Source: Candidatus Hydrogenedentota bacterium
GTDB lineage: Bacteria > Hydrogenedentota > Hydrogenedentia > Hydrogenedentales > JAJRTN01
Assembly: GCA_024278275.1 (NCBI GenBank)
Contig: JAJRTN010000171.1
Span: 1-40,597 of the forward strand
DNA length: 40,597 nt
Reading direction: 5' to 3'
Numbering within the stretch: position 1 is the stretch's first letter; every line of letters starts with the position of its first letter. A program made the position numbers and the translations under genes. The notes beneath the pieces are model-generated. The model was not told where the DNA came from and did no database searches. It worked only from the letters and a program-made list of their open reading frames with translations. Below are positions 1 through 18,814 of this stretch, in pieces.

Positions 1-1046
1 TCTTTGGTGTAGTACGCGCCCATCTGCTTCTGGTTGATGTACTTCTCGAAGATGTAGCCGAGGACATCCGGGTTGATCTCGTTGTCGGCACGCAGCGGCC
101 GCTCGTCCAGGTGCCAGGTGTAGGCATCGAAGAAGTCGAAACTGCTCTCGAAGGCCTCGTCCGGGATGTCGATCTCGCCGTATTCCCGGTCGAGTTCGTG
201 CACATCGAAGAGACCGCCGTTCAGGTACGGCACCCGCCCCAGGAGGGCTTCGAGTTCGCGCGCCCGATCCTCTTTGGGCTTGCCAAGGCCCTCGTGGAAG
301 AGGCGCAGGAGGAAGTAACGGTAGAACGAAAGGAATCGACCCTTGCCGCGACGTTCCCGCACCATTCGAAGACGGCTCCGAAGATAGTCGGGATCGCCAT
401 CGAGGAAGCCGCGCTTTTGGATGAAGTAAACGAACATCATGCGGTTCAGCATCAAGGATGCATACCAGTCGCGATCAGTCCGTTCATCGATTCCCTCGAT
501 GAAGTTCAAGAAGGCCTGATGCTCCCTCTTGAACCGGTCGTAGAACTTCTTGGTGACTTTCTCGACATCCAGCGCTGACCGTGCCCGGGCGGTCACATCC
601 GTGATGGTCAGGCGCTCTTCCTCTTCGAGCTCGAACGCCACGCCCTGCAATTTCTCGACGAGGGCCTGGGCCGTCTGGCCCCTGCGGTAGGCATGCTCGC
701 GGCACGCAGCATGAGTGCCCGCCTCGCGTTTGACCCATTGCCAGATTTGGGTCGTCTCCTTGCCGTCAACGAAGATGATCAAGTGCTCGTGGGCGGACTT
801 TCGCACCTGCTGTTCGATCTTCCGGCGGATGGGATATGGCGGCGTTTCGCCATTCGGGCCGGGGCTGCATGTGAACACCACCATGCCGCACTTCTCGGCG
901 ACCGCTTTCAGAACGTACTCAGAACCGTCGACTAGGACGACAAGGTCCGCCGTAGTGTGCCGGTTCCAGCCCAATTCCTCGACCAGAAGTCCCGGAAAAT
1001 CGAATTCCTGAAGCCTGCGCCGAACCTTTTCCACATTCACGGGCAT
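1..1046 (-). CDS. Eco57I/type IIG-like N6-adenine methylase (partial, N-terminal 348 codons)
   Basis: The frame is open from an ATG at 1046 to the window edge, so the 3' end, including the catalytic NPPY-type motif, is not visible. The visible protein begins MPVNVEKVRRRLQEF. A restriction-endonuclease-like N-terminal region contains IWQWVKREAG (101-110) and CREHAYRRGQ (115-124). A helical stretch with TDVTARARSALDVEKVTKKF follows, and the partial ends with GYIFEKYINQKQMGAYYTK (330-348). That last segment is the signature just before the SAM-binding motif in large Eco57I-type or PglX-like methylase/restriction proteins. The gene starts 3 bp after the helicase stop, so the two are very likely translationally coupled. 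Family knowledge suggests self-DNA adenine methylation, possibly combined with restriction, as part of an antiphage operon. Whether it is IIG, BREX-like or Hma-like cannot be decided from this fragment. Confidence 0.8.
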   Translation of the reverse strand, partial: MPVNVEKVRRRLQEFDFPGLLVEELGWNRHTTADLVVLVDGSEYVLKAVAEKCGMVVFTCSPGPNGETPPYPIRRKIEQQVRKSAHEHLIIFVDGKETTQIWQWVKREAGTHAACREHAYRRGQTAQALVEKLQGVAFELEEEERLTITDVTARARSALDVEKVTKKFYDRFKREHQAFLNFIEGIDERTDRDWYASLMLNRMMFVYFIQKRGFLDGDPDYLRSRLRMVRERRGKGRFLSFYRYFLLRLFHEGLGKPKEDRARELEALLGRVPYLNGGLFDVHELDREYGEIDIPDEAFESSFDFFDAYTWHLDERPLRADNEINPDVLGYIFEKYINQKQMGAYYTK

Positions 1047-1049
1047 CGA

Positions 1050-4000
1050 CTAATCCCCCTCCTGCGCTTCAATCAACCCCATCGAGCAGATTATCCGCGG
1101 CTCCTGTACGTGTGCTTCTTCCTCGATAAGGCAAAGGCGGCCTTCCTCACGCAACGCCAAGACAAGTTCGGCAAGTTTCTGATCATCAATCCCGATTCTC
1201 AGTTGCCGATTCAGTGTGTCCGTAGCCACCTGGCGCAATGGATAGCGATAGATTTCGTCGATAGCCTTCAGAAGATCTTCGGACTCAAAGAGTGTGTCCT
1301 TGACATCCTCGGCGTGGCGTTTGAGGCGTTCGTAGGTGCGGAAACGGGCGCCGCTTGGACGTCCCAACTGGCCCCCCACACGTTTCTCTTCTCTGGCAAC
1401 ATGCTGCACGGCCTCCTTGACCATTTCATGGTGCTTCTCATGTCGAGGAACAGCCGGCGTATCCGGTTTGCACTCGGCGGTCTTGAGGATCTCGAACTGG
1501 GACTCGGTGATACTCTCGCCCTTCTGGTCGACATATGCAAGTGCATCATTGTCCTCGGCCGTGCGCAAGTAGACGAGAACTCCCTCTGGACGCTGCCCAG
1601 TTGGCTCATGAGGACGAGAGGAATAAATAACATCCGGCAGGGCGGGAATTATCTTTTCTAGACTGGGGTCGGCTTCAATGGCGTTCTTCCAAATCTGGTA
1701 GGCGTAGGAAGCAAGATCCACTTCCGTATCATCTTCGCCGTCGAGTATCCCTGCCTTCTCGTTGTAGAGATCGACGATGGTCTGCTCGTCATCGTCATCC
1801 TCGAAGAACGCTTCATCGGCGCCGACCACCTCGGCGTTCTCTCGAAGCCTGCTTCGAACCCGGGTACGGAGTCGGATGATCTGTTCCACGCCTTCGGCGG
1901 GGAGGAACGAGTAGCAGAGGATGTTTTCGGCTTTCTGCCCGATGCGGTCTACGCGGCCGGCGCGCTGAATGAGCCGAATGATGGCCCATGGCAGGTCGAA
2001 ATTCACTACGACGGCACAGTCCTGCAGGTTCTGGCCTTCGCTCAGGACATCGGTGGCGACTAACACGCGGAGTTCATCCTGCGACGATATTCTGTCCCGC
2101 TTGTTGTTGCTCTCTGGACTGAAGCGCCAGGCCAAGGTTGTTGGGTTTTCTGAATTGCCCGTTGCCCCGGCCACGCCATGTATACCTCGTACCTGGAGCT
2201 GTTCCGTGATGTAACCGACGGTGTCCGCGAACTGCGAGAAGACGAGAACCTTGTCTGTTGGGTGCCTCTCTGTAAGGAGTTCGACCAAGGCCTCGAGTTT
2301 TGTGTCCTGCTCGGGATTCCATTCCCCGCAATTGGCCAACACCTTCAGCAGGGCTTTGGAATCCTTTCGGAGATCTTTGGCGAGTTCTTCGACAAAAAGG
2401 TCGGGTCGTAACCACTTGAACCGTTTCCGGTACGGCCCGGCGTAGTCGTCGTAGACCTCAGCGGCACGCTTTTCGAAATCGGCCTCGGTGCGGAGTCTCG
2501 ACTGGTCCCCGTTGATGTCACCTGCGCCGCTGTCATTCTCATCATCGAAAAGGTCGCCCACGTCCTCGTCGGCATCTGTCAAGCGGGTGTCGAGCATCTC
2601 AGCGTTCTGGGAGCCCAGTGGCAGCGGAAGTCCGTTGTCGATGGCGTGGAGATAGATGAAGTTGCGCAGGATGTGACGCTGAAGGGACTGTAGAAAGGCC
2701 GCGCCGCTGCTCTCAAGGCGCTTGAAAAGATTTGTCCTGCAAAATCCCATGAGGCGCTTACCCGCTCGCGATAGGTCTTGTAACTGCCGGGCCTCGGTCT
2801 GTGTCGGCGGTTCATGGGGTGTCGGCGCCTCGTAATTGCCCAGCCCATAGCGGGGTAGGTTTAGCGCATTGATTGCATTGACTACAGGAGGCGCATAGAG
2901 CTGGGCATATTGATCATTCGGGTCCTTGTCGTCAATCGCGAATTTGACGGTCTGAGGAACCCGCTCGGGGAAAAAGGACTTGGTTCCGTCTTCGTACGTC
3001 AAGTGTTTGCGCCCATTGCTTGGGTCGACCTCCGCGTAGTTGGCTTTGATGAAGCTGCGAGTTCGACGTACAAGATAGAGACGCATCAAGTCCCGCCAGT
3101 CATCCGCATGCTCGCTCTTTTCAAATGCTGCAAGTGATCGTACGGCGCATTGGTGTCTGCGAATGAATTCCGTCTCGGTCAGTTCCCGAAGCAACTGCTC
3201 AGGCCGGATGCCGATGTCGCGATCTTCTTCAACAAAAAGGCGAAGCTGATTGGAAAGATCCAGATAGGTCTTGTTGTATGGAGTGGCCGTAAGTAAGACG
3301 CACTTGCTGTCGTTTGTACGGATGTAATCTTGGATTGCCCTGTACCGTTTACCTTCACGGTTTCGTAGATTGTGACTCTCGTCAATTACGACGAGGCGGT
3401 AGCGTCTGAGATTTGGCAATTCCTCGATCGCTCGGCTTATGGAAAGAACTCGCCCGCGCAGCCGGTATTGCTCTCGGTAGTCCTGCCACATCTGGACCAG
3501 ATTCTTGGGGCACAGAATCAGCGTCTCGAGATCATGGTCGTCTTCGAAAATCCGTGCGAGCGCCGTGGCCATGAGTGTCTTGCCTAGGCCAACGACATCG
3601 CCGATTAGGACTCCGTTCCGTTTGTTGAGATGGTGCGCGGCAATCTTGACGGCCGCAACCTGGAAATCAAACAGCTTGTTGCCGAAATCCTTCGGGATGC
3701 GGAACTCGGATAGGCCCGCACGGGCTTCCCGAGAAAGGTGATAGGCCATCTTGACGTAGATGTGATAGGGCGGAATGGCCTCTTCGCGAGCCCAACTTTC
3801 GTCAATGATGCTGACCAGTTCGTCGGAAATATCCATGCAAAACCGGTCATCCCAGCGATCCTCAAACCACTTGGCCAGTTTCTGGCATGCGTCGCCGTCC
3901 AGCACGTCGATATTGAGCTCACCTTGGCCTACAAGGCCCGCCAACGTAAGGTTACTGCTTCCCAAGTAGCCGACGATTGGGTTGATTGGGTCTGGGCGAA

Positions 4001-4439
4001 ACAGTAGGTAGAGCTTCGCATGAAGAGGGTGACGGAGAAAGAGCTTGACGACTACCTTCTTGGCTCGGATCTGCGCGGCCAAGCGGCGAAGGCCATTCTC
4101 ATCCTCGTTGGTGGGGATTCCCATCAGCAGCTGCTGCCGAAACTCCTGAGCTAAACATTTCTTGAGCCGGATGGCCGTTTGGTTGTCCATTTCGCCCCGG
4201 CCATCGACCAGACTCATTGCTTCACGAAGTTCGTCGTGGGGGAGTCTCTGCATCCCAACGAGCAGACGGCAGCACTGACCCGCATCAGCGCCAGCCCATT
4301 GCTCGACGTACGAATCCAACCTTTTCCACCCGCGGAGGTTGAAATACCCGACACAGAAGTCGGCCCGATCAGACAATTCAAGCGTCTCTCTGAGTGCTCG
4401 GTCGAGGTGTTGTTCGATGTTGTCAAATACCCTGGGCAT
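1050..4439 (-). CDS. PLD-SNF2 family helicase (defence/R-M helicase)
   Basis: This is a protein of 1129 residues. The N-terminal third is a phospholipase-D-like domain, with HAK at 140-142 followed by GYLGSSNLT at 157-165, the HxK...GSxN pattern of PLD nucleases. A SNF2/DEAD-like motor follows: Walker A GDVVGLGKT (280-288), DESH (353-356), LLTATPYNKT, and a C-terminal helicase lobe with VLVFSQFADT and QRAGRVDRIGQK (motif VI). An acidic low-complexity insert (DEDVGDLFDDENDSGAG) separates the lobes. Only one PLD half-site is obvious, so nuclease activity may need dimerisation. The gene is followed 3 bp later by a methylase and preceded by a small DNA-binding protein. Helicase plus methylase pairs of this kind occur in several antiphage systems (Hma, DISARM-like, type IIG-associated), and the exact system is not determined here. 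A weak G-rich ribosome site lies about 11 nt before the ATG. Confidence 0.85.
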   Translation of the reverse strand: MPRVFDNIEQHLDRALRETLELSDRADFCVGYFNLRGWKRLDSYVEQWAGADAGQCCRLLVGMQRLPHDELREAMSLVDGRGEMDNQTAIRLKKCLAQEFRQQLLMGIPTNEDENGLRRLAAQIRAKKVVVKLFLRHPLHAKLYLLFRPDPINPIVGYLGSSNLTLAGLVGQGELNIDVLDGDACQKLAKWFEDRWDDRFCMDISDELVSIIDESWAREEAIPPYHIYVKMAYHLSREARAGLSEFRIPKDFGNKLFDFQVAAVKIAAHHLNKRNGVLIGDVVGLGKTLMATALARIFEDDHDLETLILCPKNLVQMWQDYREQYRLRGRVLSISRAIEELPNLRRYRLVVIDESHNLRNREGKRYRAIQDYIRTNDSKCVLLTATPYNKTYLDLSNQLRLFVEEDRDIGIRPEQLLRELTETEFIRRHQCAVRSLAAFEKSEHADDWRDLMRLYLVRRTRSFIKANYAEVDPSNGRKHLTYEDGTKSFFPERVPQTVKFAIDDKDPNDQYAQLYAPPVVNAINALNLPRYGLGNYEAPTPHEPPTQTEARQLQDLSRAGKRLMGFCRTNLFKRLESSGAAFLQSLQRHILRNFIYLHAIDNGLPLPLGSQNAEMLDTRLTDADEDVGDLFDDENDSGAGDINGDQSRLRTEADFEKRAAEVYDDYAGPYRKRFKWLRPDLFVEELAKDLRKDSKALLKVLANCGEWNPEQDTKLEALVELLTERHPTDKVLVFSQFADTVGYITEQLQVRGIHGVAGATGNSENPTTLAWRFSPESNNKRDRISSQDELRVLVATDVLSEGQNLQDCAVVVNFDLPWAIIRLIQRAGRVDRIGQKAENILCYSFLPAEGVEQIIRLRTRVRSRLRENAEVVGADEAFFEDDDDEQTIVDLYNEKAGILDGEDDTEVDLASYAYQIWKNAIEADPSLEKIIPALPDVIYSSRPHEPTGQRPEGVLVYLRTAEDNDALAYVDQKGESITESQFEILKTAECKPDTPAVPRHEKHHEMVKEAVQHVAREEKRVGGQLGRPSGARFRTYERLKRHAEDVKDTLFESEDLLKAIDEIYRYPLRQVATDTLNRQLRIGIDDQKLAELVLALREEGRLCLIEEEAHVQEPRIICSMGLIEAQEGD

Positions 4440-4680: not shown

Positions 4681-5129
4681 GCCTTGTTCTCCGTCTCTCA
4701 AGACCTCGGGCATTTTGCTCGTTTCTGCCCGTTATTGTCAAAGCCTTTTGAGCCTAAAAAGGGCAGTCAAATCGCAGAATTGGTCGTAAGTCGTTGCCGA
4801 AAAGTGCTTCACATGCGTTGGTGCATTCACCTCTCGGGTGAGCGGATTTCAACTGCCGCGCAGTTGAGAACAGTCGATATAAGTAATTGCTGCATAGCGA
4901 GATAGAACGAGTAGAATCCTCCGCGATAAGGGCGCAATTGCCCTTTTTAGGTTCAAAACGCCACCTATCGAGCCCGTCCCACAACAATTGGAATTACCCT
5001 TGCCCGGTCTTGGACAGGCCCCTTAACCGGGCAACAGGAAAACGGGAGACCTGATCCAAAAAAAAGTGATTTCAGAAGGAAAGAACCCTATTCTATGCGG
5101 GTCGAAGCGTTACGGCGATTCTGTCTTGG
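4681..5129. other. Intergenic region between the R-M operon and the leader-distal end of the CRISPR array
   Basis: I see no supported gene here. The stretch holds the promoter side of the leftward R-M operon, a long-range inverted repeat (4746-4765 and 4939-4958) and the sequence flanking the terminal CRISPR repeat. Short frames over it have no ribosome site and no recognisable product. Confidence 0.5.
4746..4958. repeat. Inverted repeat pair (20 bp, 19/20), arms 173 bp apart
   Basis: The left arm at 4746-4765 reads TTTTGAGCCTAAAAAGGGCA. The right arm at 4939-4958 is its reverse complement with one difference. The arms lie just upstream of the excisionase-like gene, between it and the CRISPR array. 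They could be paired operators for that protein, the ends of a short mobile element, or att-like core sites. The sequence alone does not decide. Confidence 0.6.
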
Positions 5130-5165
5130 ACAGCAGTGGGGCCACCGATTTTCATCGGTGGAAAG
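5130..5165 (-). repeat. Degenerate leader-distal CRISPR repeat
   Basis: The outer 7 nt of this repeat on the plus strand (ACAGCAG) differ from the consensus GCTTCAA at four positions, while the remaining 29 nt match. Degenerate terminal repeats are normally leader-distal, which places the leader at the opposite (cas2) end. Confidence 0.85.
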
Positions 5166-6436
5166 CTGTTGTTCTTGGGCAACTTCCGGGGTTACTTCCG
5201 TGGGCTTCAATGGGGCCACCGATTTTCATCGGTGGAAAGGCCGGTGCCCCGCAATCCATCATTGTGGATTGTGAGCTTCAATGGGGCCACCGATTTTCAT
5301 CGGTGGAAAGAGCACCAGCCAACGCCGCGCCCTTCGCGAAGGCGGGCCGCTTCAATGGGGCCACCGATTTTCATCGGTGGAAAGCGTCGTTTTCCTCCCA
5401 GTCGAGTAGTCCCCATTGTCTGCTTCAATGGGGCCACCGATTTTCATCGGTGGAAAGAAGGAAGACGAGAGCACGGCCCCGGTAAAGAAACTCGCTTCAA
5501 TGGGGCCACCGATTTTCATCGGTGGAAAGACCCCATGGCCGATGGAGTGAGGTACGAACGACATCGCTTCAATGGGGCCACCGATTTTCATCGGTGGAAA
5601 GGACGCAGACACCGGCAGGAGATGCGACGGGGGTTTGCGCTTCAATGGGGCCACCGATTTTCATCGGTGGAAAGCAGCATGAGCGCCGACGGTTGGGACG
5701 GTGTCCGAGAGGCTTCAATGGGGCCACCGATTTTCATCGGTGGAAAGAAAGCACTATAAGCGGTGCCAGCGCAAGACGCACTGGCTTCAATGGGGCCACC
5801 GATTTTCATCGGTGGAAAGTCCGTGTGTCTACCGACAAGCCCCTGTGGGACTTCGGGCTTCAATGGGGCCACCGATTTTCATCGGTGGAAAGGGTCTGCC
5901 CGGCGGCCGGGGGTGTGATGGTGTGCGTGCTTCAATGGGGCCACCGATTTTCATCGGTGGAAAGTTCACACGGGCGAAGGGGGGGCTATACAGCAACAAA
6001 AGCTTCAATGGGGCCACCGATTTTCATCGGTGGAAAGTTCCGAAAGGCGAGGCAATACCGGTCGACGAGCTCTATGCTTCAATGGGGCCACCGATTTTCA
6101 TCGGTGGAAAGAGGCGTGGGCTGCCGGCAGGGCCGACGGAGATAAAAGGCTTCAATGGGGCCACCGATTTTCATCGGTGGAAAGTCCATCGATCCGTTCC
6201 CGTCCGATGAGGTTAAGATTTAGCTTCAATGGGGCCACCGATTTTCATCGGTGGAAAGAGCGACGATGATGGGCCCATCTGTCAGAGTTGTCTGCTTCAA
6301 TGGGGCCACCGATTTTCATCGGTGGAAAGGTTATCTGCCTGTCAATTATTCTCCTTCCTGCATAGCTTCAATGGGGCCACCGATTTTCATCGGTGGAAAG
6401 TCGCCCTGCCGGTGAAAGGCTGAAAATATTTGGCGG

Positions 6437-6472
6437 GCTTCAATGGGGCCACCGATTTTCATCGGCGGAAAG
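6437..6472 (-). repeat. CRISPR repeat with a stem point variant
   Basis: The plus-strand base at 6466 is C instead of T. In a minus-strand transcript the change is A to G opposite U, so the crRNA stem keeps a G-U wobble. In a plus-strand transcript it would be a C-A mismatch. This is weak extra support for minus-strand transcription. Confidence 0.85.
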
Positions 6473-7603
6473 CATCTGGTGCGTGGCGGTGGGCGGTGTC
6501 AGGTGGAGCTTCAATGGGGCCACCGATTTTCATCGGTGGAAAGTGGGAACTGGCATTCGAGCTCGGCTCCCATGCGGAACGCTTCAATGGGGCCACCGAT
6601 TTTCATCGGTGGAAAGTCCATCGCCAGATCGGTAGCGATGACCGTATCCAGAGCTTCAATGGGGCCACCGATTTTCATCGGTGGAAAGTTGCTGAGGCGC
6701 GACATCACGCGATCTCCCATTCCAGCTTCAATGGGGCCACCGATTTTCATCGGTGGAAAGCCCGATGAAGGCACCAAAGTCCCCTCCTTTGTTGCTGCTT
6801 CAATGGGGCCACCGATTTTCATCGGTGGAAAGGCCGGTGCATGGGTGCGGTTCAACCCGCTCGATGGGCTTCAATGGGGCCACCGATTTTCATCGGTGGA
6901 AAGCTCCTTGTTTGCGCCCAAGGTATTCGAGCGCGGATTGCTTCAATGGGGCCACCGATTTTCATCGGTGGAAAGCCGCCGGCACAAGGCACACCCGCCT
7001 CCCCAGGATCCACGCTTCAATGGGGCCACCGATTTTCATCGGTGGAAAGGCCTTATTTGTGTTATAGTTTAGGCGTAGTTTAGGTGCTTCAATGGGGCCA
7101 CCGATTTTCATCGGTGGAAAGCGGAACTTTATCGAGGGGAGTGGTTTACGCGGCTCCTGCTTCAATGGGGCCACCGATTTTCATCGGTGGAAAGAAATAG
7201 TCACTCACCCCCATTCGCCGGAGCTTTATCGCTTCAATGGGGCCACCGATTTTCATCGGTGGAAAGCCGCGCACACGCACGTAGCATGGTCGCGCATGAA
7301 GCAGCTTCAATGGGGCCACCGATTTTCATCGGTGGAAAGCCCCATCGACCTCTATAAGGTCGTCGTGGAGGCTCCCAGCTTCAATGGGGCCACCGATTTT
7401 CATCGGTGGAAAGGCGTTCAGCTGCGCTCCAGCGTTGCCCCCGTGGTGTCGCTTCAATGGGGCCACCGATTTTCATCGGTGGAAAGGGCCTTCTGTGCCT
7501 CGGCACGCACGGCGTCGAGGTGCTTCAATGGGGCCACCGATTTTCATCGGTGGAAAGATCGCGCTTTGTAAGTTCCTTTGGGGCAGTGGATTAGGCGACC
7601 GTT

Positions 7604-7771: not shown

Positions 7772-8062
7772 CTACACCACGATGGCGTGGCGTTCGACGA
7801 AGACGTAGGGCTTGCCGATGGCCTGGGTGGCGCCGGCGTTGTAGCTTTCGGCGGTTCCCAGGGAAAAGATGAGGATCTGGTCCTCCCGGTGATTGATGAG
7901 CGGGTTGAGGTCGGCAATCATCCGGGCGTGTTCCTTGTCGGACAGTTCGCATTGAAACACGGAATACTGGAGGTGTTCTCCGTAGCCGTTCATTTTCCGG
8001 AACACGCGCCGCAGGCGCTTGTCGTCGGCGATATCGTAGGTTACCAGATAGATGCGGCGCAT
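7772..8062 (-). CDS. cas2: CRISPR-associated endonuclease Cas2
   Basis: The 96-residue protein is of normal Cas2 length. It starts MRRIYLVTYDIADDKRLRRV, with the conserved first-strand Asp at position 10 (YDI), and contains the YSVFQCEL strand typical of the ferredoxin-like Cas2 fold. Cas2 dimers bridge two Cas1 dimers during spacer integration. The gene is the last of the cas operon, 3 bp after the cas4-cas1 stop, and lies next to the leader. Confidence 0.95.
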   Translation of the reverse strand: MRRIYLVTYDIADDKRLRRVFRKMNGYGEHLQYSVFQCELSDKEHARMIADLNPLINHREDQILIFSLGTAESYNAGATQAIGKPYVFVERHAIVV

Positions 8063-10302: not shown

Positions 10303-11739
10303 TCAAGGTTCAACCTCGGATTTGCCGAGGGGAAAAAAGAGGCCAAGCCCCCGATGTCGTCCTGCACCAAGGGCAAGTGGACCCGGTACGGAGTGTTTCC
10401 AAGCCAGTTCCACGTGCATAGCCGAGTAGTTCTCGAAATGCTTGGCGCGCTTATAGTCTTTCGGATGGTAGGCGTGGGTCTGGAACGGCGCTTTGCGGAG
10501 ATGGATGTCCGTTATGTCCTCCGGAGAGAACCCCGCTTGGCGAACTGCCTTCAGGAGCAGCTTCTCCGCTTTGGCGTATTTCATCCCATCGAAGCCCGGC
10601 AAGATCACGGGTGTCACCGTTCGGAAGCGTTTGCCCGATTCAGTGAAGCTCTTGAATCCCTTTTCCGTGCGCCGGGTGCGGCTGAGTTCGGCGACGATAT
10701 CGCCCCCGGAGTTCTTAAGGAGAGCGGACTGGAGTGCTTTCCCCGCCCAACTCACTTTCTGCCCATCGCCCCCATAGGGCTCCGCGAGGATGAAGCGGCG
10801 AATGAGGCCGTCTGCATGTGCGTGACCAATGGAAGGCAACGGTAGATAGGAGAATCGGGGGGGCGTTCTTGATTCCCCTTCCGCTACATGGCCGGCGATG
10901 TATTCCTCCGGGTCGCCGAGAAAAGCAACACCAGGGCGCTGGCCGAGTTCGCAGAGACGGCTTCGAACCCACGCGGAGACCAGGACCGTATCCCTTGGGT
11001 CAAAGGAAGCCATGCGCCGTGATTCACTGCCGGGTCTCAATAGGGTGAAACAGGCCGTGGGGCGATAGGTTTTTCCCTCCCGGGCATACCCGACCTCTGC
11101 ATACTCGGTGGGCTTCTGAGCGGGCGTGTAGACTGGCCCATCCCAGCGCGCCAGTGCGGATGCATGACAGGCTTTCAGGTTTGCGTAGGAGCCTGGGCAG
11201 GGACATCGCAGGGTTTTGTCACCCCACGCGGCGGGCTTCCATCGTTGGCCGGGATAACCGGCCTTCAGGTTGTCCGCCTGTTCTTGGGAGAGGATAAGGC
11301 CGTTGCCTGCGACAAGGTCGATCCCAAGGCCAACGGCGGTCAGCATGCGCGCGTAGTCGCACAGACGTTGAAGCTCTCCCTTGCTATCCGAGGCCACCGC
11401 CCACAGGTAGTGGACCGTACGCGTAGGGCCAGTGAACAGCACCGGGTTGAAGTCCTTGTCCGTAAGGCGGGCCTGCCTGTCCGGCTGCACATCCGATGCG
11501 TTATTGGGCACGTAGGTCTTTCGCCTCTGGCCCACCGCGACGGCAGGTGCGAGCACCACCGGAGGCGGGAGTTGTTCAAACGCCGCGAAAACCGTCTGGT
11601 CCTCCACCCGATTCCCGGCGGCTGCGTTGAGGAGCGCCTGGTAGAGCCGCCACGGCGAGGGGGGCCACTCGGTCCCCTCTGCGGTCTGCCCATGGAAACG
11701 GTCATCAAGGTAGGTAATCGAGATGCATAGCGTGTCCAT
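10303..11739 (-). CDS. csb2: Csb2 (Cas5-Cas6-type Cascade subunit, subtype I-G)
   Basis: The 478-residue protein begins MDTLCISITYLDDRFHGQTA and then EWPPSPWRLYQALLNAA, the N-terminal signature of the GSU0054/Csb2 family. It ends with the glycine-rich LALGAGRHRGLGLFFPLG, the G-loop of RAMP/Cas6 folds. In subtype I-G this protein combines the Cas5 role at the crRNA 5' handle with Cas6-like processing of the repeat hairpin. The start lies 2 bp from the csb1 stop. Downstream is the 485-bp interruption before cas4-cas1. Confidence 0.9.
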   Translation of the reverse strand: MDTLCISITYLDDRFHGQTAEGTEWPPSPWRLYQALLNAAAGNRVEDQTVFAAFEQLPPPVVLAPAVAVGQRRKTYVPNNASDVQPDRQARLTDKDFNPVLFTGPTRTVHYLWAVASDSKGELQRLCDYARMLTAVGLGIDLVAGNGLILSQEQADNLKAGYPGQRWKPAAWGDKTLRCPCPGSYANLKACHASALARWDGPVYTPAQKPTEYAEVGYAREGKTYRPTACFTLLRPGSESRRMASFDPRDTVLVSAWVRSRLCELGQRPGVAFLGDPEEYIAGHVAEGESRTPPRFSYLPLPSIGHAHADGLIRRFILAEPYGGDGQKVSWAGKALQSALLKNSGGDIVAELSRTRRTEKGFKSFTESGKRFRTVTPVILPGFDGMKYAKAEKLLLKAVRQAGFSPEDITDIHLRKAPFQTHAYHPKDYKRAKHFENYSAMHVELAWKHSVPGPLALGAGRHRGLGLFFPLGKSEVEP

Positions 11740-11741: not shown

Positions 11742-12773
11742 CTACTCTTCTTTCTTCGCTTTCTTGAGCGCTTCCTTCGCAGCCTTGGCATCAAACTCGA
11801 CCGAGCGTAATGCTTCAACCCCAAAGGTATCCGCGGATTGCCTTGCGAAATCGAGCGCTTGCTGGTGGGTGAGGGTAAAGCCTTCACGGCTGCCGTCGTG
11901 GTGTACCAGTTCCCAGGTGGCGGGGCGCTCAGGGTCGGCGGTCAATTCGCAACCCATTCGCAGAAACGTATCCTGGGGCGCGGTGAAGGTCACCAAAGCC
12001 AGGCCGAGAATGTACTGACGCAGCGTTGCGGTGGCAGTATCATCGGTGCCGGAAAGCTGACGTAGCGCGGCGAGACTGAGCACGGCCTCCCGGAAGAGCA
12101 CGCTCTGCCCGTCAATTAGCACGCCCCCCAACGCAGCAGGCGCCGGAACATGCCCCATACCTGCATCGGGGAGCTTCTTTTTCTCGGCATCCGTGAGCTT
12201 GTCGAATGCGGCTTCATAGTCATCCAGTGCCGGGGTGAACTGCGCCGAACGAGTGAGCTTATGCACATTATGGGCACGCACCGTAGCCCGTACGATTCGA
12301 GGAAGCTTCACTCCGGTTCCCCGGGAGTCCCAGCACCCGAAGATGAGGGAAGTAGGGGCCAGCCTGGCGAGGAGGGTAGTATCTCCGTGCTTCGCCGCGA
12401 GGAATGCGTCCTGGATAGCCTCGGAAAGCTCAGAGAAGCGAACGACCGCGTCAGCCACACGATGGCCCGCGTCGAGGATATCGACTATCTCGCCCGTCCT
12501 GGGAATGGTAACCTGTACTTGCGGGATAAGCTGTGAGTATGGCGCGCACTTGAAGAGGGGCTCCATCCGGTTCGCTTGCGAGCCAACGCTGTCGATCAGG
12601 CACACATTGCCGGTGACACGGCCATCGGCATCTGTGAGTTCGTCGATGTTATAGCCGACATCGGCAAAGGTTGGTGGGAAGATGACAGCATTGTCGCCTT
12701 CCACCGGCTTGAGGTTCTGCCGCATTACGATGGCAGCGTTGCTTGAGTCAAGTAGCGTGACGATTTCTTTCAT
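11742..12773 (-). CDS. csb1: Csb1 (Cas7 backbone subunit, subtype I-G)
   Basis: The 343-residue protein has the GSU0053/Csb1 pattern: NAVIFPPTFAD near the N-terminus, then NVCLIDSVGSQANRMEPLFK and a conserved TSLIFGCWDSRGTG segment. Csb1 is the Cas7-type RAMP that polymerises along the crRNA spacer. The C-terminus is lysine-rich (KAAKEALKKAKKEE). The start lies 3 bp after the csb3 stop, so cas3-csb3-csb1-csb2 form a tight translationally coupled block. Confidence 0.92.
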   Translation of the reverse strand: MKEIVTLLDSSNAAIVMRQNLKPVEGDNAVIFPPTFADVGYNIDELTDADGRVTGNVCLIDSVGSQANRMEPLFKCAPYSQLIPQVQVTIPRTGEIVDILDAGHRVADAVVRFSELSEAIQDAFLAAKHGDTTLLARLAPTSLIFGCWDSRGTGVKLPRIVRATVRAHNVHKLTRSAQFTPALDDYEAAFDKLTDAEKKKLPDAGMGHVPAPAALGGVLIDGQSVLFREAVLSLAALRQLSGTDDTATATLRQYILGLALVTFTAPQDTFLRMGCELTADPERPATWELVHHDGSREGFTLTHQQALDFARQSADTFGVEALRSVEFDAKAAKEALKKAKKEE

Positions 12774-12776: not shown

Positions 12777-13556
12777 TCAGTTCTCCTGTTTGAACCTTGA
12801 AATGCCGAAAGCCTTATACCGGCCTTCACTATCCCGCTCGTACATCGAGAAGGAAAGAGTCCCCTGAGAGACCCCATAAATCCTCATTCCTATGGCCAAA
12901 GCGGCAATTCCTATGGGCAATGGCCGGTCCCAAACATGGAATTGCCTGCCAAGCCGCGTGGCATCCCTTGACGGGCAGAATCGCTGCAGGGCAATGAGGG
13001 CGAGCAATTCGGTTGCGGTGGCCGGACAGGTTTGGTAGGCGTTTCCCAGATCGTTGAGAGAGAATCCTGCGTCCTGGGCCGTCTCGCATTTCGAAATGTT
13101 GTAGGCGGTTACGCCACCTTTTGTTCGGGTGAGTTGGGCAAGTACTGAGGCATCAGGCCTGGCGGGAAGTGAAGCAATCAAGTCGGCTGTGATCTTGGCA
13201 ATGGACTGTTGCCCCGCCCATGTTTTCACCAATCGGTTCTGTGGATAGGCTTTTCTCCAATCGATGGTAAAACCAAAAGGTTTTCCCAGCACCACCGGCC
13301 CCTCCTTTTGTGCTTCATCGCCGGAGACTGGACACGCCTTCAGAAGATCCCACACTTTCTTGAGGCCGATGGAAGTGTCATTCGCATCGTGAGCCGCAAG
13401 CAGAAACTCGGTTGTTGTCTTGTTGATGTCCCGAAACCATCCCATGGCGGGCCGGTCTTGGGGCGTAAGGCGATGGGCCAGTTCGAAGAGGCCACAGCAG
13501 GCAAAGACCTGCCCGGGATTGCACAGGTCGACTTTCACGGTCAGGGTGGGCTTCAT
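12777..13556 (-). CDS. csb3: Csb3 (small Cas8-type subunit, subtype I-G)
   Basis: The start at 13556 overlaps the cas3 stop in an ATGA junction and gives a 259-residue protein starting MKPTLTVKVDLCNPGQVFAC. The longer frame overlaps cas3 and has no family resemblance. The CGLFELAHRLTP segment and the location between cas3 and csb1 match Csb3 of the GSU0051-GSU0054 arrangement. Csb3 takes the Cas8 place (PAM recognition and Cas3 recruitment) in the Csb3 variant of I-G, where other loci carry the much larger Csx17. The assignment relies on position and weak motifs more than on strong sequence signatures. Confidence 0.8.
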   Translation of the reverse strand: MKPTLTVKVDLCNPGQVFACCGLFELAHRLTPQDRPAMGWFRDINKTTTEFLLAAHDANDTSIGLKKVWDLLKACPVSGDEAQKEGPVVLGKPFGFTIDWRKAYPQNRLVKTWAGQQSIAKITADLIASLPARPDASVLAQLTRTKGGVTAYNISKCETAQDAGFSLNDLGNAYQTCPATATELLALIALQRFCPSRDATRLGRQFHVWDRPLPIGIAALAIGMRIYGVSQGTLSFSMYERDSEGRYKAFGISRFKQEN

Positions 13557-16369
13557 GATTCCTCCTCCAGGATGCCGTTCTGCTCGGCGGCGGAAGCAAT
13601 GGCATCCGCGCGGCGCAGGATGGACTCCAGCCACGCAAGCCCCCACCAGCCAAAGCGTCTTTGGAGCCGGTCATAGCGCAGCATGGCCTCATAGGCGGTC
13701 TGTTCGCCGGGGGTGCCGGTTCCCCCCAGTAAAAAGGCCCCTGACTGGAAATGGGGGCGAGCCCATCCGTGGTGTGTGGAAATGCTATGCAGAATAAGGT
13801 CGGCCTCAGGATGATCCCGGATTTCCGCCATGTCTCCCAATACCTGAAGACTACCGGCCTCATGTCGGTAGCCATCCAGTTTGCGCCAGTCAACGGCGCC
13901 TTTCGCCAGCGGGGCATTGTCGGATTCGGGGTCGTGTCCTGCGGCTATCTGCCAGCGTGGTGCCTCCTTACCCTTGTCATGGTGCTGCGCCGCCAGGACA
14001 AGCGCTTCACGAATTTTTTCTGGAAAGGGGAAAGCGGTGCACAGTTTCCTGGTGACTTCGGCGACATGGTTGCTGTGTTCCTGGACTGTGGGAATGGTGT
14101 CTGTCGAGCCCCCGACACGTCGTTCTGCGACGGGCCTCAGCAAGACAAGCCATTTCTCGCAGACTTCGTCGTCCTCGGCGAATTCGTCCGCGATTTCAAC
14201 TTGCAGCTTCAGAACCATTTTCAGCCCTTTTTCGCGTTCGATATATCGGATCGAGGTGGACACGCGTTCCCACGGTGGCGTCTCTGTGTCCGACCCACCG
14301 GAATCCCCCAGAATGCTGTAGTGCCATACAGCGCCCTCTCTCGTGAGGAGGCACCGGCATAGGTCCCTGCTCGCCACGTCCAACTTTTCTGCCGGGTGCG
14401 TCGTTTTCGGGTCGAAGAAACCGGCCTCGCTAAGTCCAGACACATCCGTCGGTAAAATGATGCTGGCATAGTTGAGCCGCATCGAACGGGGGTGCTCTAC
14501 GAGGTTCTTGAGTATGGTTTTGACTGCCTCCCCTTGAGGTGAAAGGACGATAACGGTAGCATCGTGCTTCTCCTGCGGGAATCCCTTGAGCAGCGTACTC
14601 ATATCATCTTTTCCCTGCTTGAGGATTGTGTGTGTTGGAAGCTGGAGGCGCTCGCAGGCACGCAGTGGGTGCGCGAGGAACCACCTTTTCAGGTCCTCCT
14701 CGGAAAGGTTTTTCAGGTAGGTGACTTCGCTCCGCCAAGCCAGAATGGTCTGCGGATAGTTGTCCTGGATGCCATGGAGCCACGATTCCGGCTCCGGACT
14801 CGCCGCCATGCCTTCGACCGAGGTTTGTGCCCAAAGGTCCAGCAAAAGGGGTGTCAGGTCGACCATCTCGGGAACCGGTGAGAATGCTTCGCGAACGGTC
14901 TCTTCTTGAAGCCAATGCTGAAGGCAGGAAATACTCACATCGATGCTCGAATCCTGGCCCCTCTTACCCCTGAGAAATGCAAGCGTTGCCTTTCGGGCCA
15001 ATTCCTCCGCTGTCTCCTTGCCCTTGACTTTATTCAGGGACTCGTCATGCACTACCTGCACATCGGCTTGGCTGCTACCGAAGCGATTGACCCGGCCCAG
15101 CCGCTGTATCATGGAATCGAGGGTCGACAGGTCGCAGACCATGTGGTCGGCATGGAGATCCATACCTACCTCGGCTGCTGAGGTGGCAACCAGGTAGGCG
15201 GCCTCTTCAGGGATGCACTCTGTCAGGAACGGCTGCATCGCTGGGAGTAACAACAGCTTGTCCCGTTCATATCCACGAATCTGGCCGGTGAGGATGTTCA
15301 CGCGGCGTGCCGCTTCCCGCCTCAGTTCATCGGACTTTTTCCTGGGGAGAGGGGTGCCTGGGTTGGCCTCTTCAAAGACGTTGACCGCAATATCGCCAAG
15401 CGCCTTCTGGATGCCATCGGCAACCTTTCCGGCATCCTCTGGCTTTCGGAGGAACACAACCACGCGGCAGGGCATTGATGCATGCTCAAGGGCGAGGTCT
15501 ATGATGCGTTCCTGGAGGGGCTTCCCATCTTTCTCGACCTCATTGAGGTAGAGCGTCTTGTTGGCCTTCAGCCGGGGGGCTATGATGTGGTCGGCCTCGT
15601 CCTCCGGACTAAGCAGGAGCGGCTCGGCACTGTTCTGACCGTTGACTGTATGCGTTGCCGAGAGTTCAAGCACCTGCATTTTCGCTATCCAGTGGATCGG
15701 TTCGCCGAAGTTTTGAGTTGCTTGTTGCTTGTTGTTTGTTGTTTGCGTCACGAAGGCATGAACCGAACGAAGCAGCTTCCCGAATGCCGGGGTGAGGTGT
15801 GCCTCATCGTGGATGAACAGGCAATCACATCCCAGCAGTCCGGCATGTAAGGGGCGCATGCGGCGACTGTCGCCATAGCCCGAGAACAGCAGTTTGCTGC
15901 CGATCATATCCACCGTACCAATCACGATGGCCGGCTTGGCCGGATTCGATTTCCACTCCTCATTGTCCGCGAACTCCCCTCGAAGCGTGCTTACAGCCAG
16001 GGGTGTAGTGGCGTCGTTGGACAGGGGGTCCAGTTTCATCAGCGCCGTAGCGGCCTTATACAGAGCGCTGCCATCATTGCCCAGTGCCTCGATAATCCTC
16101 TGGCGAATGGTGGTAACCAGATCGGTAGCTTGGTCAACGATGGTGCGCCGGTTCACAACATAGACCAACCGCCTGGGGAGGTCCGTATTGCAGGCCAGGG
16201 CCAGCAGCCAAATGGGTATCACCATCGTCTTTCCGATCCCCGTGGGAATATCGCAGACCGAGGGGACGTCATTGAGTAAGAGCCGTTCATATAGCCGCCC
16301 TTGCCATGGGAAGGGCGGGAATCCCGTGAGTGCCTTGAAAGCCTCCTCGAAAGCACGGTTTTTACTCAT
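13553..16369 (-). CDS. cas3: Cas3 helicase-nuclease with C-terminal HD domain
   Basis: The ATG at 16369 (MSKNRAFEEAFKALTGFPPF) was chosen because GGAG lies 8 nt upstream, giving 938 residues. SF2 helicase motifs are CDIPTGIGKT (39-48), VYVVNRRTIVDQ, FIHDEAHL (DEAH box), LELSATH, and MIQRLGRVNRFG (motif VI). The HD nuclease is at the C-terminus: EHSNHVAEVTRKL, then LAAQHHDKGKEAPRW, then STHHGWARPH. This order is reversed relative to most Cas3 proteins and is typical of GSU0051-like I-G Cas3. The enzyme unwinds and degrades DNA marked by Cascade. It is the first intact gene of the cas operon, 47 bp downstream of the broken WYL gene. Confidence 0.95.
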   Translation of the reverse strand: MSKNRAFEEAFKALTGFPPFPWQGRLYERLLLNDVPSVCDIPTGIGKTMVIPIWLLALACNTDLPRRLVYVVNRRTIVDQATDLVTTIRQRIIEALGNDGSALYKAATALMKLDPLSNDATTPLAVSTLRGEFADNEEWKSNPAKPAIVIGTVDMIGSKLLFSGYGDSRRMRPLHAGLLGCDCLFIHDEAHLTPAFGKLLRSVHAFVTQTTNNKQQATQNFGEPIHWIAKMQVLELSATHTVNGQNSAEPLLLSPEDEADHIIAPRLKANKTLYLNEVEKDGKPLQERIIDLALEHASMPCRVVVFLRKPEDAGKVADGIQKALGDIAVNVFEEANPGTPLPRKKSDELRREAARRVNILTGQIRGYERDKLLLLPAMQPFLTECIPEEAAYLVATSAAEVGMDLHADHMVCDLSTLDSMIQRLGRVNRFGSSQADVQVVHDESLNKVKGKETAEELARKATLAFLRGKRGQDSSIDVSISCLQHWLQEETVREAFSPVPEMVDLTPLLLDLWAQTSVEGMAASPEPESWLHGIQDNYPQTILAWRSEVTYLKNLSEEDLKRWFLAHPLRACERLQLPTHTILKQGKDDMSTLLKGFPQEKHDATVIVLSPQGEAVKTILKNLVEHPRSMRLNYASIILPTDVSGLSEAGFFDPKTTHPAEKLDVASRDLCRCLLTREGAVWHYSILGDSGGSDTETPPWERVSTSIRYIEREKGLKMVLKLQVEIADEFAEDDEVCEKWLVLLRPVAERRVGGSTDTIPTVQEHSNHVAEVTRKLCTAFPFPEKIREALVLAAQHHDKGKEAPRWQIAAGHDPESDNAPLAKGAVDWRKLDGYRHEAGSLQVLGDMAEIRDHPEADLILHSISTHHGWARPHFQSGAFLLGGTGTPGEQTAYEAMLRYDRLQRRFGWWGLAWLESILRRADAIASAAEQNGILEEES

Positions 16370-16416
16370 ATCTTCCGCTCCATGCGCTGTGTTTGCCCGT
16401 TCGATCATCGCCGGTA

Positions 16417-17102
16417 TCAATCGAAAACATGACCACTCTCCTTCGGTGCCTTCCCCCAAGCTTTGTATCTATCCACCAACTTGACCAGACTGAAACTTAT
16501 TTCCTCCCGCAGGTCACTGGGCTCAAGCAACTCGGCGTCGGGACCAAAGCCAAGCACCCAAACGACGACCTGAAACGACTGGTGGCGATGAAGATGAGAA
16601 TAAGCGCGCCATCCTTGCGCTTGGTGAGTTTCCGGTCGGGGCTCCAGGTGCGTTCGGCAACGTAGGTGGCCGCGTCACCCCAAAACGCAACCTTCACCCA
16701 GATGAGTTCGTGGAGAGGGAAATCGAAGTGGGGGTCGTGGTCCTCTTCGTGGGTATCGGGGAAGGTGGCCACGTCGATGTAATAACGCTTGATGCAATGC
16801 ACGGCCAAGGTACGAAAGTCGTCGGCAGGCTGTGCGGGCGCGTCGTATCGGTGGCATCGAAGGTAAAGAATAATCTGGAGGGGGGCCACGAGATAGGTGT
16901 GCCGCCTTCCGCTGGAACGGGCCTGATAGATAACCTGCAACTCCTCTTCGAGTCCGTCGTCCTCCACGGAGGAGAGCTTCACGAGGTAATTTGGCTTCCC
17001 TGTGTCACCCACCAGTCGAGGGGCGAACGTGATGATCTCCGTGACAACGAAAGGACGTTTTCTGGTGATGACCAACTGACCAGCTTCTGGCTCGTTCTGC
17101 AA
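16417..17102 (-). pseudogene. Chimeric DrmD-WYL gene, frameshifted
   Basis: From the ATG at 17102 the first 58 or so residues (GQLVITRKRPFVVTEI, then LVKLSSVEDDGLEEELQVIY) match my knowledge of the N-terminus of DISARM DrmD SNF2 helicases. Directly after VIY the frame continues as a WYL domain: VAPLQIILYLRCHRY, DDFRTLAVHCIKRYYIDV, ERTWSPDRKL. Near 16570 the frame is lost. The proper C-terminus (FQVVVWVLGFGPDAELLEP, then LREEISFSLVKL) continues one frame over and ends at TGA 16417. An intact WYL gene would be a likely regulator of the cas operon. Here a deletion seems to have joined drmD to the WYL gene, and a one-base shift then broke the product. The conceptual unshifted frame stops at 16497. 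The DrmD call is from memory of the family and should be searched. Confidence 0.7.
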
Positions 17103-17542: not shown

Positions 17543-17677
17543 TCATCCGCACTTTCCGGGGAAGGCTTCGCGAACCCGTAGAAAGCTATACCCGTCATCT
17601 TGGAACCCGCAGCCCATTCGCTTGATGACTTTGAGCCTGTTGTTGACTCCCTTGAGGATACTGGTGTTGAGTGGGCG
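17543..17677 (-). pseudogene. ISL3-type transposase C-terminal remnant
   Basis: Forty-four codons ending in TGA read RPLNTSILKGVNNRLKVIKR, then MGCGFQDDGYSFLRVREAFP. This is the C-terminal signature of ISL3-type DDE transposases, whose tail reads roughly NTGVLEGINNKIKVIKRMAYGFRD...FLKIRAAFPG. Everything upstream of this tail is gone and no terminal inverted repeat could be matched, so the element is dead. It marks a former insertion between the cas operon and the phage-like genes. Confidence 0.75.
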
Positions 17678-17950
17678 CTTACAGTGGACTGGGATGCCCG
17701 AATTGCCGGTCATCATAGCGGGTGCGTGCGGATGGCCTGTGGCCGTTTTCAGCGTCGTGAACTCCCGAATTGTGTAACAGTGGATCGCATGCCCTGGTGA
17801 TAACCCGGTACCAGCATGAAAGGAAAGCGGAAAACGAATTCATCATCGCGCAGGCCCACGCCGACGGCAACCTCAAGCAGCAATTTCCAGTAAACAAACC
17901 GCTACTGGATGGCACGTTGAGAACCCCCGATTTTCCAAATGCCTCGTCCC
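17678..17950. other. Gene-free stretch between IS remnant and terminase gene
   Basis: No credible gene was found. Two further copies of the ACAGTGRAYY-type motif lie at 17678-17690 and 17774-17786. The stretch may be eroded IS or phage DNA. Confidence 0.35.
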
Positions 17951-18487
17951 TTATCCGTATTTCGGCCATTCTTTATGGAGCCGTTCCAGAAAGTCTCGGA
18001 GTTTATCGCGGCCTTCCTCGTCGAGTTGCTCAACGCTGACGTCTCCCGCGATGAGCTGCATAAAGGTGCCTTGTAGGACTTTGTGCTCGTGTTTCTGGAT
18101 GAAATAGCCCGCAGACCTCGCCAGTAGTTCGGAGGCGCGCAGGCGGGTCATTGGCGGTAAGCGTACATCATCCATCATGGCTGACCATGCCGCTTGCAGC
18201 TTCTGTCGATTCACGATTCGTTCTTTCCGACCCTCGATTTCACGTGATTGAATCGCGGCGATAATGTGACTTTTTGATACCAGTCGCCGAGCATAACCGT
18301 AGCTGAGATTCGCCACTTTTGCCGCAACACGAATGTCACCAGCATAAGCATCCACAAACCTCCTTTGACGCACCGTCAGTGACCGTGTTGAAGCCCGAGG
18401 CCGATATACTCGCGCGGCACCATGCTTCTGCTGGTAACCGCGTGTTACCAATATCGCCTTCTTCGTTTTTGACCCTATTCTCTTCAT
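17951..18487 (-). CDS. Phage terminase small subunit-like protein
   Basis: The 178-residue protein has the small terminase pattern: SLTVRQRRFVDAYAGDIRVA with AKVANLSYGYARRLVSK (the N-terminal helix-turn-helix that binds pac/cos DNA), then a basic region and a C-terminal acidic helix. The start at 18487 has GGAG 10 nt upstream. No large terminase, portal or capsid gene accompanies it, so it is either a prophage leftover or a satellite-type packaging gene. It lies about 280 bp from the tRNA-Gly fragment that looks like an attachment site. Confidence 0.75.
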   Translation of the reverse strand: MKRIGSKTKKAILVTRGYQQKHGAARVYRPRASTRSLTVRQRRFVDAYAGDIRVAAKVANLSYGYARRLVSKSHIIAAIQSREIEGRKERIVNRQKLQAAWSAMMDDVRLPPMTRLRASELLARSAGYFIQKHEHKVLQGTFMQLIAGDVSVEQLDEEGRDKLRDFLERLHKEWPKYG

Positions 18488-18572: not shown

Positions 18573-18698
18573 CTACTCGCGGTCCCCCAGCAGGTCTGTC
18601 AACACCCCCAATAACTCACCCTTCGAAAGCCCCCGTAACACCTCCACCGCCGCCCGTGGGTCCGTTTTTGACATGGTATCCGGCGATTTAGTGCCCAT
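18573..18698 (-). CDS. Small hypothetical protein near the attachment site
   Basis: A frame of 41 residues begins MGTKSPDTMSKTDPRAAVEV and continues LRGLSKGELLGVLTDLLG, a short amphipathic helix-rich peptide. AGGCGG lies about 7 nt before the chosen ATG. The frame is open further upstream, but that part only translates the tRNA fragment antisense and is not coding. The function is unknown. It is 85 bp upstream of the terminase-like gene in the same orientation and could be co-transcribed with it. Confidence 0.4.
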   Translation of the reverse strand: MGTKSPDTMSKTDPRAAVEVLRGLSKGELLGVLTDLLGDRE

Positions 18699-18765
18699 TT
18701 CGATGCCGCCTAATTTATGCTTGTCCGTAAGTGCTTTGTCCGTTGTACTTATGACACCAGACTTG

Positions 18766-18814
18766 CAGCTTCCCAAGCTGGATGTCGCGGGTTCGAGCCC
18801 CGTGTCCCGCTCCA
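18766..18814 (+). other. tRNA-Gly(CCC) 3' half, probable attachment site (attR)
   Basis: The 49 nt include the anticodon arm (CAGC, loop TTCCCAA with anticodon CCC, GCTG), a T-arm with GGGTTCGAGCCCCGT, the acceptor 3' strand GTCCCGC, and an encoded CCA at 18812-18814. The matching 5' acceptor strand GCGGGAC and a D-arm are absent upstream. A lone 3' half is the usual trace left by tyrosine-integrase elements that insert in a tRNA gene. Because the CCA end points right, the element lies to the left. Confidence 0.7.

What the first reader, a model, noticed from the sequence alone, without database searches (positions are those of the whole stretch)
1..18814. A whole defence region may be an element integrated in tRNA-Gly(CCC)
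The 3' half of a tRNA-Gly, with anticodon loop, T-arm and encoded CCA but no 5' half, lies at 18766-18814, next to a terminase small subunit and an IS remnant. Its orientation puts the integrated DNA to the left, where I find a helicase-methylase operon, a complete I-G CRISPR-Cas locus and DISARM debris. To the right the genes look chromosomal. This predicts an intact tRNA-Gly(CCC) carrying the same 49 nt beyond the left edge, and a mobile defence island that includes a CRISPR system.
Basis: partly seen in the sequence, partly recalled or inferred. Interest (0 to 1): 0.7.

Follow-up and report, generated by a model that had tools for sequence, protein, structure and literature searches.

The report
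CRISPR-bearing defence island in tRNA-Gly
A stretch of bacterial DNA carrying a CRISPR immune system and other anti-virus genes appears to have inserted itself into a glycine tRNA gene using an integrase that is now broken, and relatives in the same phylum carry other defence islands in the same gene, so this tRNA looks like a reusable docking site for immunity genes.

Summary
The window is one whole contig (C142) of a Candidatus Hydrogenedentota genome. Window 18766-18814 is the 3' 49 nt of tRNA-Gly(CCC); identity runs to 18821 (56 nt). Contig C168 holds the only other exact copy found, inside an intact tRNA-Gly(CCC), followed by the C-terminal half of a convergent tyrosine integrase cut off by an IS. 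Both contigs carry the same 18-nt repeat at the distances from the core where six related elements with both ends on one contig have theirs, so they are very likely two ends of one element. The contigs are not joined, so island membership of the I-G CRISPR-Cas locus is inferred. At least seven of 68 phylum genomes have interior 3'-half fragments of this tRNA. The four such islands scanned along a long island side carry defence genes; one has both ends, 19.9 kb and an intact integrase. CRISPR-Cas on tRNA islands is known from Vibrio, so this is a new member of a known kind. Less ordinary: a phylum-wide integrase family with paired 12-bp arm sites inside int, and satellite-like relatives.

The parts
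18766..18821 (+). attR: displaced 3' part of tRNA-Gly(CCC) (nt 28-76 of the tRNA) plus 7 nt of shared 3' flank
   Evidence: 100% over 56 nt to G000:C168, where the tRNA is intact
18687..18704 (+). candidate right-arm integrase site, 18 nt; the same 18 nt lies 139 nt past the core on the integrase side (L005 596-613, minus strand)
   Evidence: wider 46-nt similarity at 78% over window 18669-18714; 1844 random comparisons within the window shared at most 12 nt
17951..18487 (-). terminase small subunit-like gene, 178 aa
   Evidence: phrog_51 E 4.8e-7; homologues in 2 of 67 other phylum genomes
17560..17940 (-). possible IS/transposase remnant
   Evidence: read by eye; ORF 17679-17969 matched no family
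16497..17102 (-). chimeric scar ORF: about 61 aa of a DrmD-like N-terminus fused to the C-terminal half of a WYL regulator
   Evidence: PADLOC DrmD on residues 3-62; 47-49% to WYL genes beside two Hydrogenedentota Cas4-1 loci
13553..16459 (-). cas3g
   Evidence: PADLOC Cas3g E 9e-168
12777..13646 (-). cas8g (csb3); start uncertain, ORF overlaps cas3
   Evidence: PADLOC Cas8g E 3e-32
11742..12773 (-). cas7g (csb1)
   Evidence: PF09617 E 4e-37
10303..11739 (-). cas5-6g (csb2)
   Evidence: PF09609 E 3e-35
8066..10120 (-). cas4-cas1 fusion; in the closest homologues the match starts at residue about 107, so the true start is probably further in
   Evidence: PADLOC Cas1g E 3e-174
7772..8062 (-). 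cas2, 96 aa
   Evidence: identified by its sequence and place only
5127..7557 (+). CRISPR array, 36-nt repeat, 33 good repeats from 5204 plus a degenerate one from about 5127; spacers 35-38 nt
1050..4439 (-). HKD(PLD)+Snf2 helicase
   Evidence: PADLOC C3a139 E 4e-50; the same model hits a helicase beside a tRNA-Gly fragment in G060:C887; paired with the type IIG gene in 3 of 3 IMG/VR loci
3..1046 (-). type IIG restriction-methyltransferase, first 348 aa, cut by the contig end
   Evidence: PADLOC REase_MTase_IIG E 2e-116 to profile positions 3-343 of 1100; remainder not found in the assembly
18923..20743 (-). right chromosomal flank: dynamin-like GTPase

Best explanation
The left 18.8 kb of the window is the right part of a genomic island that integrated into the 3' half of tRNA-Gly(CCC). 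A tyrosine integrase coded at the island's other end (contig C168) recombined a circular attP, holding a copy of tRNA nt 28-76, with the chromosomal tRNA. That rebuilt an intact tRNA on the integrase side (attL) and left the displaced 3' half at 18766-18821 (attR). The integrase probably bound arm sites on both sides of the core: 61 nt before it in the window and 139 nt after it in C168. The island carries defence cargo: a type IIG/HKD-Snf2 pair and a type I-G CRISPR-Cas locus. It is now probably not self-mobile, because the integrase's N-terminal half is cut off by an IS. Shown: the two att copies, intact tRNA, integrase half, arm repeat, and the same layout in relatives with both ends on one contig. 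Inferred: that C168 and C142 are ends of one element, that everything between is island DNA, the action of the integrase, and loss of mobility.
For: Exact 56-nt copy in an intact tRNA-Gly(CCC) with a convergent integrase C-terminus carrying HxxR, H and Y. Shared 18-nt arm repeat at the same geometry as six two-ended elements. A tRNA or tmRNA lies in 23 of 29 fetched loci of related integrases. Five of the 34 stretches fetched hold a second, exact 26-52-nt tRNA 3' copy. G047 has a 19.9-kb island in the same tRNA with a 576-aa integrase and a 51-nt copy. Interior 3'-half fragments with similar breakpoints occur in seven genomes. Defence genes were found in the four tRNA-Gly islands with a long scanned side. 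GC shifts near the boundary.
Against: The contigs are not physically joined; the integrase N-terminus and the rest of the type IIG gene were not found. No empty-site close relative is held, and no tRNA-Gly was seen beside the flanking genes in the distant relatives examined. G000's left arm lacks a clear 12-bp tandem (6 of 9), as does its right arm. A scar between terS and cas leaves room for a later rearrangement. The related I-G locus in G044 has none of these integrases on its contig. GC at 8-12 kb is 61.6-66.9%, not clearly below the right flank.
Confidence: 0.8

Rival explanations
1. The tRNA fragment, arm site and terS are a true island end, but the CRISPR-Cas and helicase region to their left was joined to it later by an IS-mediated deletion or inversion, so CRISPR never travelled with the island.
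For: The stretch 16.5-17.9 kb between terS and cas holds a chimeric DrmD/WYL ORF and an IS-like remnant read by eye. The genome has 24 other copies of the IS end seen in C168, at least 22 at contig ends. G044 has a related I-G locus without this integrase family.
Against: Among the ORFs scanned left of the scar there is only defence or unassigned sequence. GC stays below the right flank over much of 1-18.8 kb, though not at 8-12 kb. Three other tRNA-Gly islands carry comparable defence blocks.
Confidence: 0.14
2. The element is a phage satellite (P4- or PICI-like) rather than a plain genomic island, with TerS used to redirect packaging of a helper phage.
For: Four two-ended relatives of 7-10 kb carry an integrase plus DnaB_C/AAA_25, CHC2 or PriS genes (Toprim below its cut-off). 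TerS sits at the end opposite the integrase here, about 16 kb from the integrase in G010:C101 with a type I R-M system between, and between two integrases in G002:C116.
Against: TerS homologues occur in only 3 of 68 genomes, G000 included. The G047 integrase and the window TerS match no phage record, and one IMG/VR scan with that integrase, which reaches close relatives only, gave none. No replication gene was found among the window ORFs scanned, and the far att of G010:C101 was not found.
Confidence: 0.25
3. The window's left edge does not lead to C168 at all but to chromosome, for instance to contig C117, which starts with the C-terminal part of a type IIG gene next to tRNA-Pro(TGG).
For: C117's gene part begins at about profile position 424 (PDLC03596) where the window's part ends at about 399.
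Against: No sequence overlap between the two contig ends. Three full-length homologues that match the window part at 56-59% match the C117 protein at about 21-30% over its main aligned stretches, so it is a different enzyme.
Confidence: 0.04
4. The 56-nt copy is a chance or unrelated duplication of a tRNA piece, not an att site.
For: The window alone shows only a half tRNA.
Against: Exact identity, right orientation, integrase next to the intact copy, arm repeat, recurrent breakpoints in other genomes.
Confidence: 0.01

Closest known systems
tRNA/tmRNA-integrated genomic islands as catalogued in Islander (PMC4383910, passages read)
   Same: Tyrosine integrase, intact tRNA at one end, displaced 3' fragment at the other in the same orientation. 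Islander's anticodon-centred class (2083 of its 3919 islands) fits a core that includes the anticodon arm.
   Different: The two ends are on separate contigs and the integrase is truncated, so Islander's own filters (same replicon, length, whole interval) cannot be applied.
CRISPR-Cas-bearing genomic islands of Vibrio, several at tRNA genes (PMC6360697, passages read)
   Same: CRISPR-Cas as cargo of an integrase island, some at tRNA-Leu or tRNA-Met loci, in places with R-M genes and lower GC.
   Different: Different phylum; subtype I-G here, while the passages seen name I-F, I-E, II-B and III. The paper reports excision of VPI-6 and an excision assay for GI-24; here only sequence.
P4-like satellites with antiviral hotspots (PMC9122126, passages read)
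   Same: Integrative element ferrying exchangeable defence systems; relatives here have primase/helicase-type genes.
   Different: P4-like hotspots are small (paper: about 1-5 kb); this island is at least 19.5 kb. No helper or cos site tested.
Tycheposons of Prochlorococcus (recalled; only search listings seen)
   Same: tRNA-integrated tyrosine-recombinase elements with satellite traits (recalled).
   Different: Not compared by sequence.

Membership tests
tRNA-integrated genomic island | Intact tRNA and a displaced 3' fragment in the same orientation | tested here: met
   orientation holds if C168 is read reversed and placed left of C142
tRNA-integrated genomic island | Tyrosine integrase inside the island next to the tRNA | tested here: met
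   PF00589 positions 114-169, phrog_1 and phrog_216; only the C-terminal half remains
tRNA-integrated genomic island | tRNA and fragment on one replicon with the island between | tested here: inconclusive
   two contigs; linked by the shared core and arm repeat; no overlap found at the window's left end
tRNA-integrated genomic island | Absent from a close relative at the same site | not testable with these tools
   nearest held genomes are same order only
Type I-G CRISPR-Cas | Cas3, Cas8g, Cas7g, Cas5-6g, Cas4-1 and Cas2 with an array | tested here: met
   Cas2 by inspection only
DISARM | Intact core drm genes | tested here: not met
   only about 61 aa DrmD-like N-terminus in a chimeric ORF; the Snf2 helicase scores best with C3a139 HKD+Snf2, above DrmD
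Phage satellite (P4/PICI-like) | Integrase plus replication (primase/helicase) module | tested here: inconclusive
   replication-type genes in the four 7-10 kb two-ended relatives examined, not seen among the window ORFs scanned; the middle of the island is missing
Phage satellite (P4/PICI-like) | Helper-dependent packaging | not testable with these tools
   TerS-like gene only

The most novel reading that the evidence does not exclude
Hydrogenedentota host an undescribed, phylum-wide family of tRNA-seeking satellite-like elements. They share one integrase family with paired 12-bp arm sites written into the 3' end of the int gene and mirrored beyond the core, carry primase/helicase or TerS genes, and reuse tRNA-Gly(CCC) to ferry defence systems. 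The window's member is a satellite-like element carrying a whole I-G CRISPR-Cas locus.
Probability: 0.25. Interest if true: 0.7.

Novelty: new member of a known kind. Interest (0 to 1): 0.45.

Why it matters
It turns a guess from half a tRNA into a mapped island end and shows how a CRISPR-Cas locus could move in a candidate phylum for which three paper searches listed no title on the subject (papers not opened). It names a recurrent docking site, tRNA-Gly(CCC), where defence islands can be sought directly. The arm-site geometry (repeats about 50-100 nt before and about 105-173 nt after the core) suggests a way to pair island ends that lie on different contigs, a common problem in metagenome bins.

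Tried and rejected
Empty-site test by synteny: no tRNA lies in the 19 other-genome loci scanned around the right-flank GTPase and no tRNA-Gly in 9 of the 14 other-genome loci with the left-flank polymerase; flanks were about 1.5 kb and the relatives are distant, so the test is weak. The rest of the integrase and of the type IIG gene were sought in the own genome without success. The integrase of G047 and the window TerS gave no match in 50,697 phage records; an IMG/VR scan with the G047 integrase gave no relative. The far att of the G010:C101 element was not found. Spacers against the loci held at that time gave one hit, 17 nt of a 38-nt spacer, treated as chance. DISARM as a real component was rejected. 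That defence cargo is special to tRNA-Gly is not established: in a small control of 10 large ORFs from six islands, at a stricter cut-off (1e-10 against 1e-5), one island (L118, tRNA-Lys) had defence hits and the one protein scanned from another tRNA-Gly(CCC) island (L104) had none; G010:C101 at tRNA-Lys carries type I R-M.
Full report
Observation. The window is the whole contig C142 of a 5.35-Mb, 200-contig genome. The closest relatives of its Cas4-1 protein in named genomes are labelled Candidatus Hydrogenedentota. Window 18766-18814 equals nt 28-76 of a 76-nt tRNA-Gly(CCC) and the identity runs 7 nt further, to 18821. ARAGORN finds no full tRNA in the window. The only other exact copy found in the genome is in contig C168 (5426 b), where the tRNA is intact. 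Two other tRNA-Gly genes match at 81-83%.

The other end. Reading C168 in the tRNA's direction: a DEAD-box helicase and a B-family polymerase gene (named from their translations, no family search), then tRNA-Gly(CCC), then a convergent tyrosine integrase C-terminus (PF00589 positions 114-169, phrog_1 and phrog_216), then an IS at the contig end. That IS end has 24 other matches in the genome, at least 22 of them at contig ends. The integrase keeps HxxR, H and Y (catalytic roles recalled). The half with the first arginine is missing: a search with a nine-member family alignment found model positions 324-540 there, and N-terminal model positions elsewhere only in the different tmRNA-site integrase on C78. 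The integrase reading frame runs into the tRNA's opposite strand.

Linking the ends. Between 400 nt left of the window core and 500 nt past the C168 core, the one repeat reported is 18 of 18 nt (window 18687-18704; L005 596-613 minus). The window arm against 1844 random 700-nt comparisons within the window shared at most 12 nt. I then looked at six other elements whose two ends lie on one contig: G047 tRNA-Gly, L110 tRNA-Lys, L122 and L114 tRNA-Arg, L127 tRNA-Arg (only 1.7 kb, a remnant), L130 tRNA-Pro. In the six the best inter-arm repeat (13-26 nt) lies about 52-87 nt before the right core and about 105-173 nt after the left core; in L130 the best one is inverted, with shorter direct ones. 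G000's repeat falls in the same places. In the left arms of 44 tRNA/integrase rows, 32 have a near-perfect tandem (at least 8 of 9; period 11-13, 12 in all but one) against 120 of 2200 random segments. Of those 44 rows, five are neighbouring tRNAs that are not the target and three are second copies of the same place, so the cleaned count is 30 of 36. G000 itself scores only 6 of 9, and G047 7 of 9. On right arms, the five two-ended elements at other tRNAs score 9 of 9; among tRNA-Gly fragments G011 scores 9, G009 8, and G000, G047, G014, G039 and the two of G060 6-7. On the integrase side these paired sites lie inside the int reading frame.

The left edge. The window's left edge cuts a type IIG gene. 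Its first 200 nt have no overlap with any other contig. Contig C117 starts with the C-terminal part of a type IIG gene beside tRNA-Pro(TGG), which could have been the continuation and would have weakened the island reading. It is not: the ends do not overlap, and three full-length homologues that match the window part at 56-59% match the C117 protein at about 21-30% over its main aligned stretches. In those three IMG/VR loci the same helicase lies directly upstream (69-72% identity, 3 of 3), so helicase and type IIG gene form a conserved pair that also occurs on virus-labelled contigs.

Relatives. The integrase C-terminus has matches in 43 of 68 phylum genomes, G000 included. Of 29 loci fetched (best match per genome), 23 have a tRNA or tmRNA within the fetched flank. 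Five of the 34 stretches fetched hold a second exact tRNA 3' copy, of 26, 49, 49, 51 and 52 nt (in L122 ARAGORN reads the copy as part of a 95-nt tRNA-Gln). The four of 7-10 kb carry replication-type genes: DnaB_C or AAA_25, with CHC2 or a below-cut-off Toprim, or PriS (only some of their ORFs were scanned). G010:C101 has the integrase at tRNA-Lys, a type I R-M system, and a TerS-like gene about 16 kb from the integrase.

tRNA-Gly(CCC) as a reused site. A search with the tRNA and its flank hit all 68 genomes. Interior 3'-half-only fragments starting at tRNA nt 26-32 occur in seven genomes (G000, G009, G011, G014, G039, G047, G060 twice). ARAGORN reads the G011 one as a 73-nt tRNA-Gly, but its 5' half does not resemble the gene. 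Two more fragments begin at base 1 of a contig (G056, G052) and were dropped; the list was cut, so seven is a lower bound. G047:C68 has both ends: tRNA, 576-aa integrase, 51-nt copy, 19.9 kb, with type I R-M subunits and several PADLOC candidate genes. G009:C47 carries type I R and S, dCTPase, Orf5/HEC-06, AbiD and PD-T4-6 hits left of its fragment. G060:C887 carries type III R-M, candidate genes and an HKD+Snf2 helicase, the same PADLOC model as the window's helicase. The far ends of the last two were not seen. With G000 that is four of the four tRNA-Gly islands whose long island side was scanned. Against this, the one protein scanned from a fifth (G065:C544, L104) had no hit at 1e-10, and a sixth (G002:C88, L119) was not scanned.

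Cargo in the window. The I-G operon is cas3, cas8g, cas7g, cas5-6g, cas4-1 and cas2 with 33 good repeats and a degenerate end repeat. I-G Cas5-6g occurs in only 2 of 68 phylum genomes. Among the 80 Cas4-1 loci kept, the nearest are Hydrogenedentota (64-81%), the rest mostly Proteobacteria and related groups at about 54% and below. G044's locus (Cas3 56%, Cas7 68%) has no integrase of this family on its 25-kb contig, so the CRISPR locus is not tied to the element. 'DISARM debris' is a chimeric ORF: a DrmD-like start fused to the end of a WYL gene that is longer, with an N-terminal part, beside two other Hydrogenedentota Cas4-1 loci.

Known context. Islander describes this signature (PMC4383910, passages). 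CRISPR-Cas on tRNA-integrated islands is reported in Vibrio (PMC6360697, passages). P4-like satellites carry defence hotspots (PMC9122126, passages). Two searches combining Hydrogenedentota with defense or integrase, and one combining Hydrogenedentes with CRISPR, listed no title on this subject; those papers were not opened.

Judgement. The island reading is well supported. That the CRISPR locus lies inside it is likely but rests on contigs that are not joined. Present mobility is doubtful. The satellite reading is open.

Noticed in passing
G000:C117 (L124) 63-4722; G000:C16 (L091) about 7990-8423; G000:C173 (L092) 6-395: The same genome has three further truncated integrases of this family beside tRNA-Pro(TGG), tRNA-Arg(ACG) and tRNA-Val(TAC); upstream of the tRNA-Pro lies a low-GC stretch (52.7%) with part of a different type IIG gene.
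   Followed up: partly
integrase loci of Hydrogenedentota, about +115 to +172 after the tRNA: Paired 12-bp repeats are written inside the int reading frame and appear as VTPTVTPT-like protein tails, so the tail looks shaped by DNA sites.
   Followed up: partly
L281, L282, L283 (IMG/VR); L284 (Synechocystis plasmid pSYSX): The HKD+Snf2 helicase and type IIG gene of the window lie together on three virus-labelled contigs; on L283 a complete 72-nt tRNA-Gly(CCC), with no BLAST match to the window's tRNA beyond 11 nt, lies about 650 nt upstream of the helicase. On pSYSX a homologous methyltransferase follows a helicase-related gene (not aligned).
   Followed up: partly
L145, L146, L188: Hydrogenedentota loci share the Cas4-1 protein (64-77%) but have strongly diverged Cas3 and Cas5-6 relatives (about 25-55% over pieces), suggesting effector and adaptation modules were exchanged.
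   Followed up: no
window 8066-10120: The Cas4-1 ORF has about 106 extra residues at its start that the closest homologues lack, so the real start is probably internal.
   Followed up: no
G002:C116 (L137) 5244-9529: A TerS-like gene sits between two tyrosine integrases beside tRNA-Pro(CGG).
   Followed up: no
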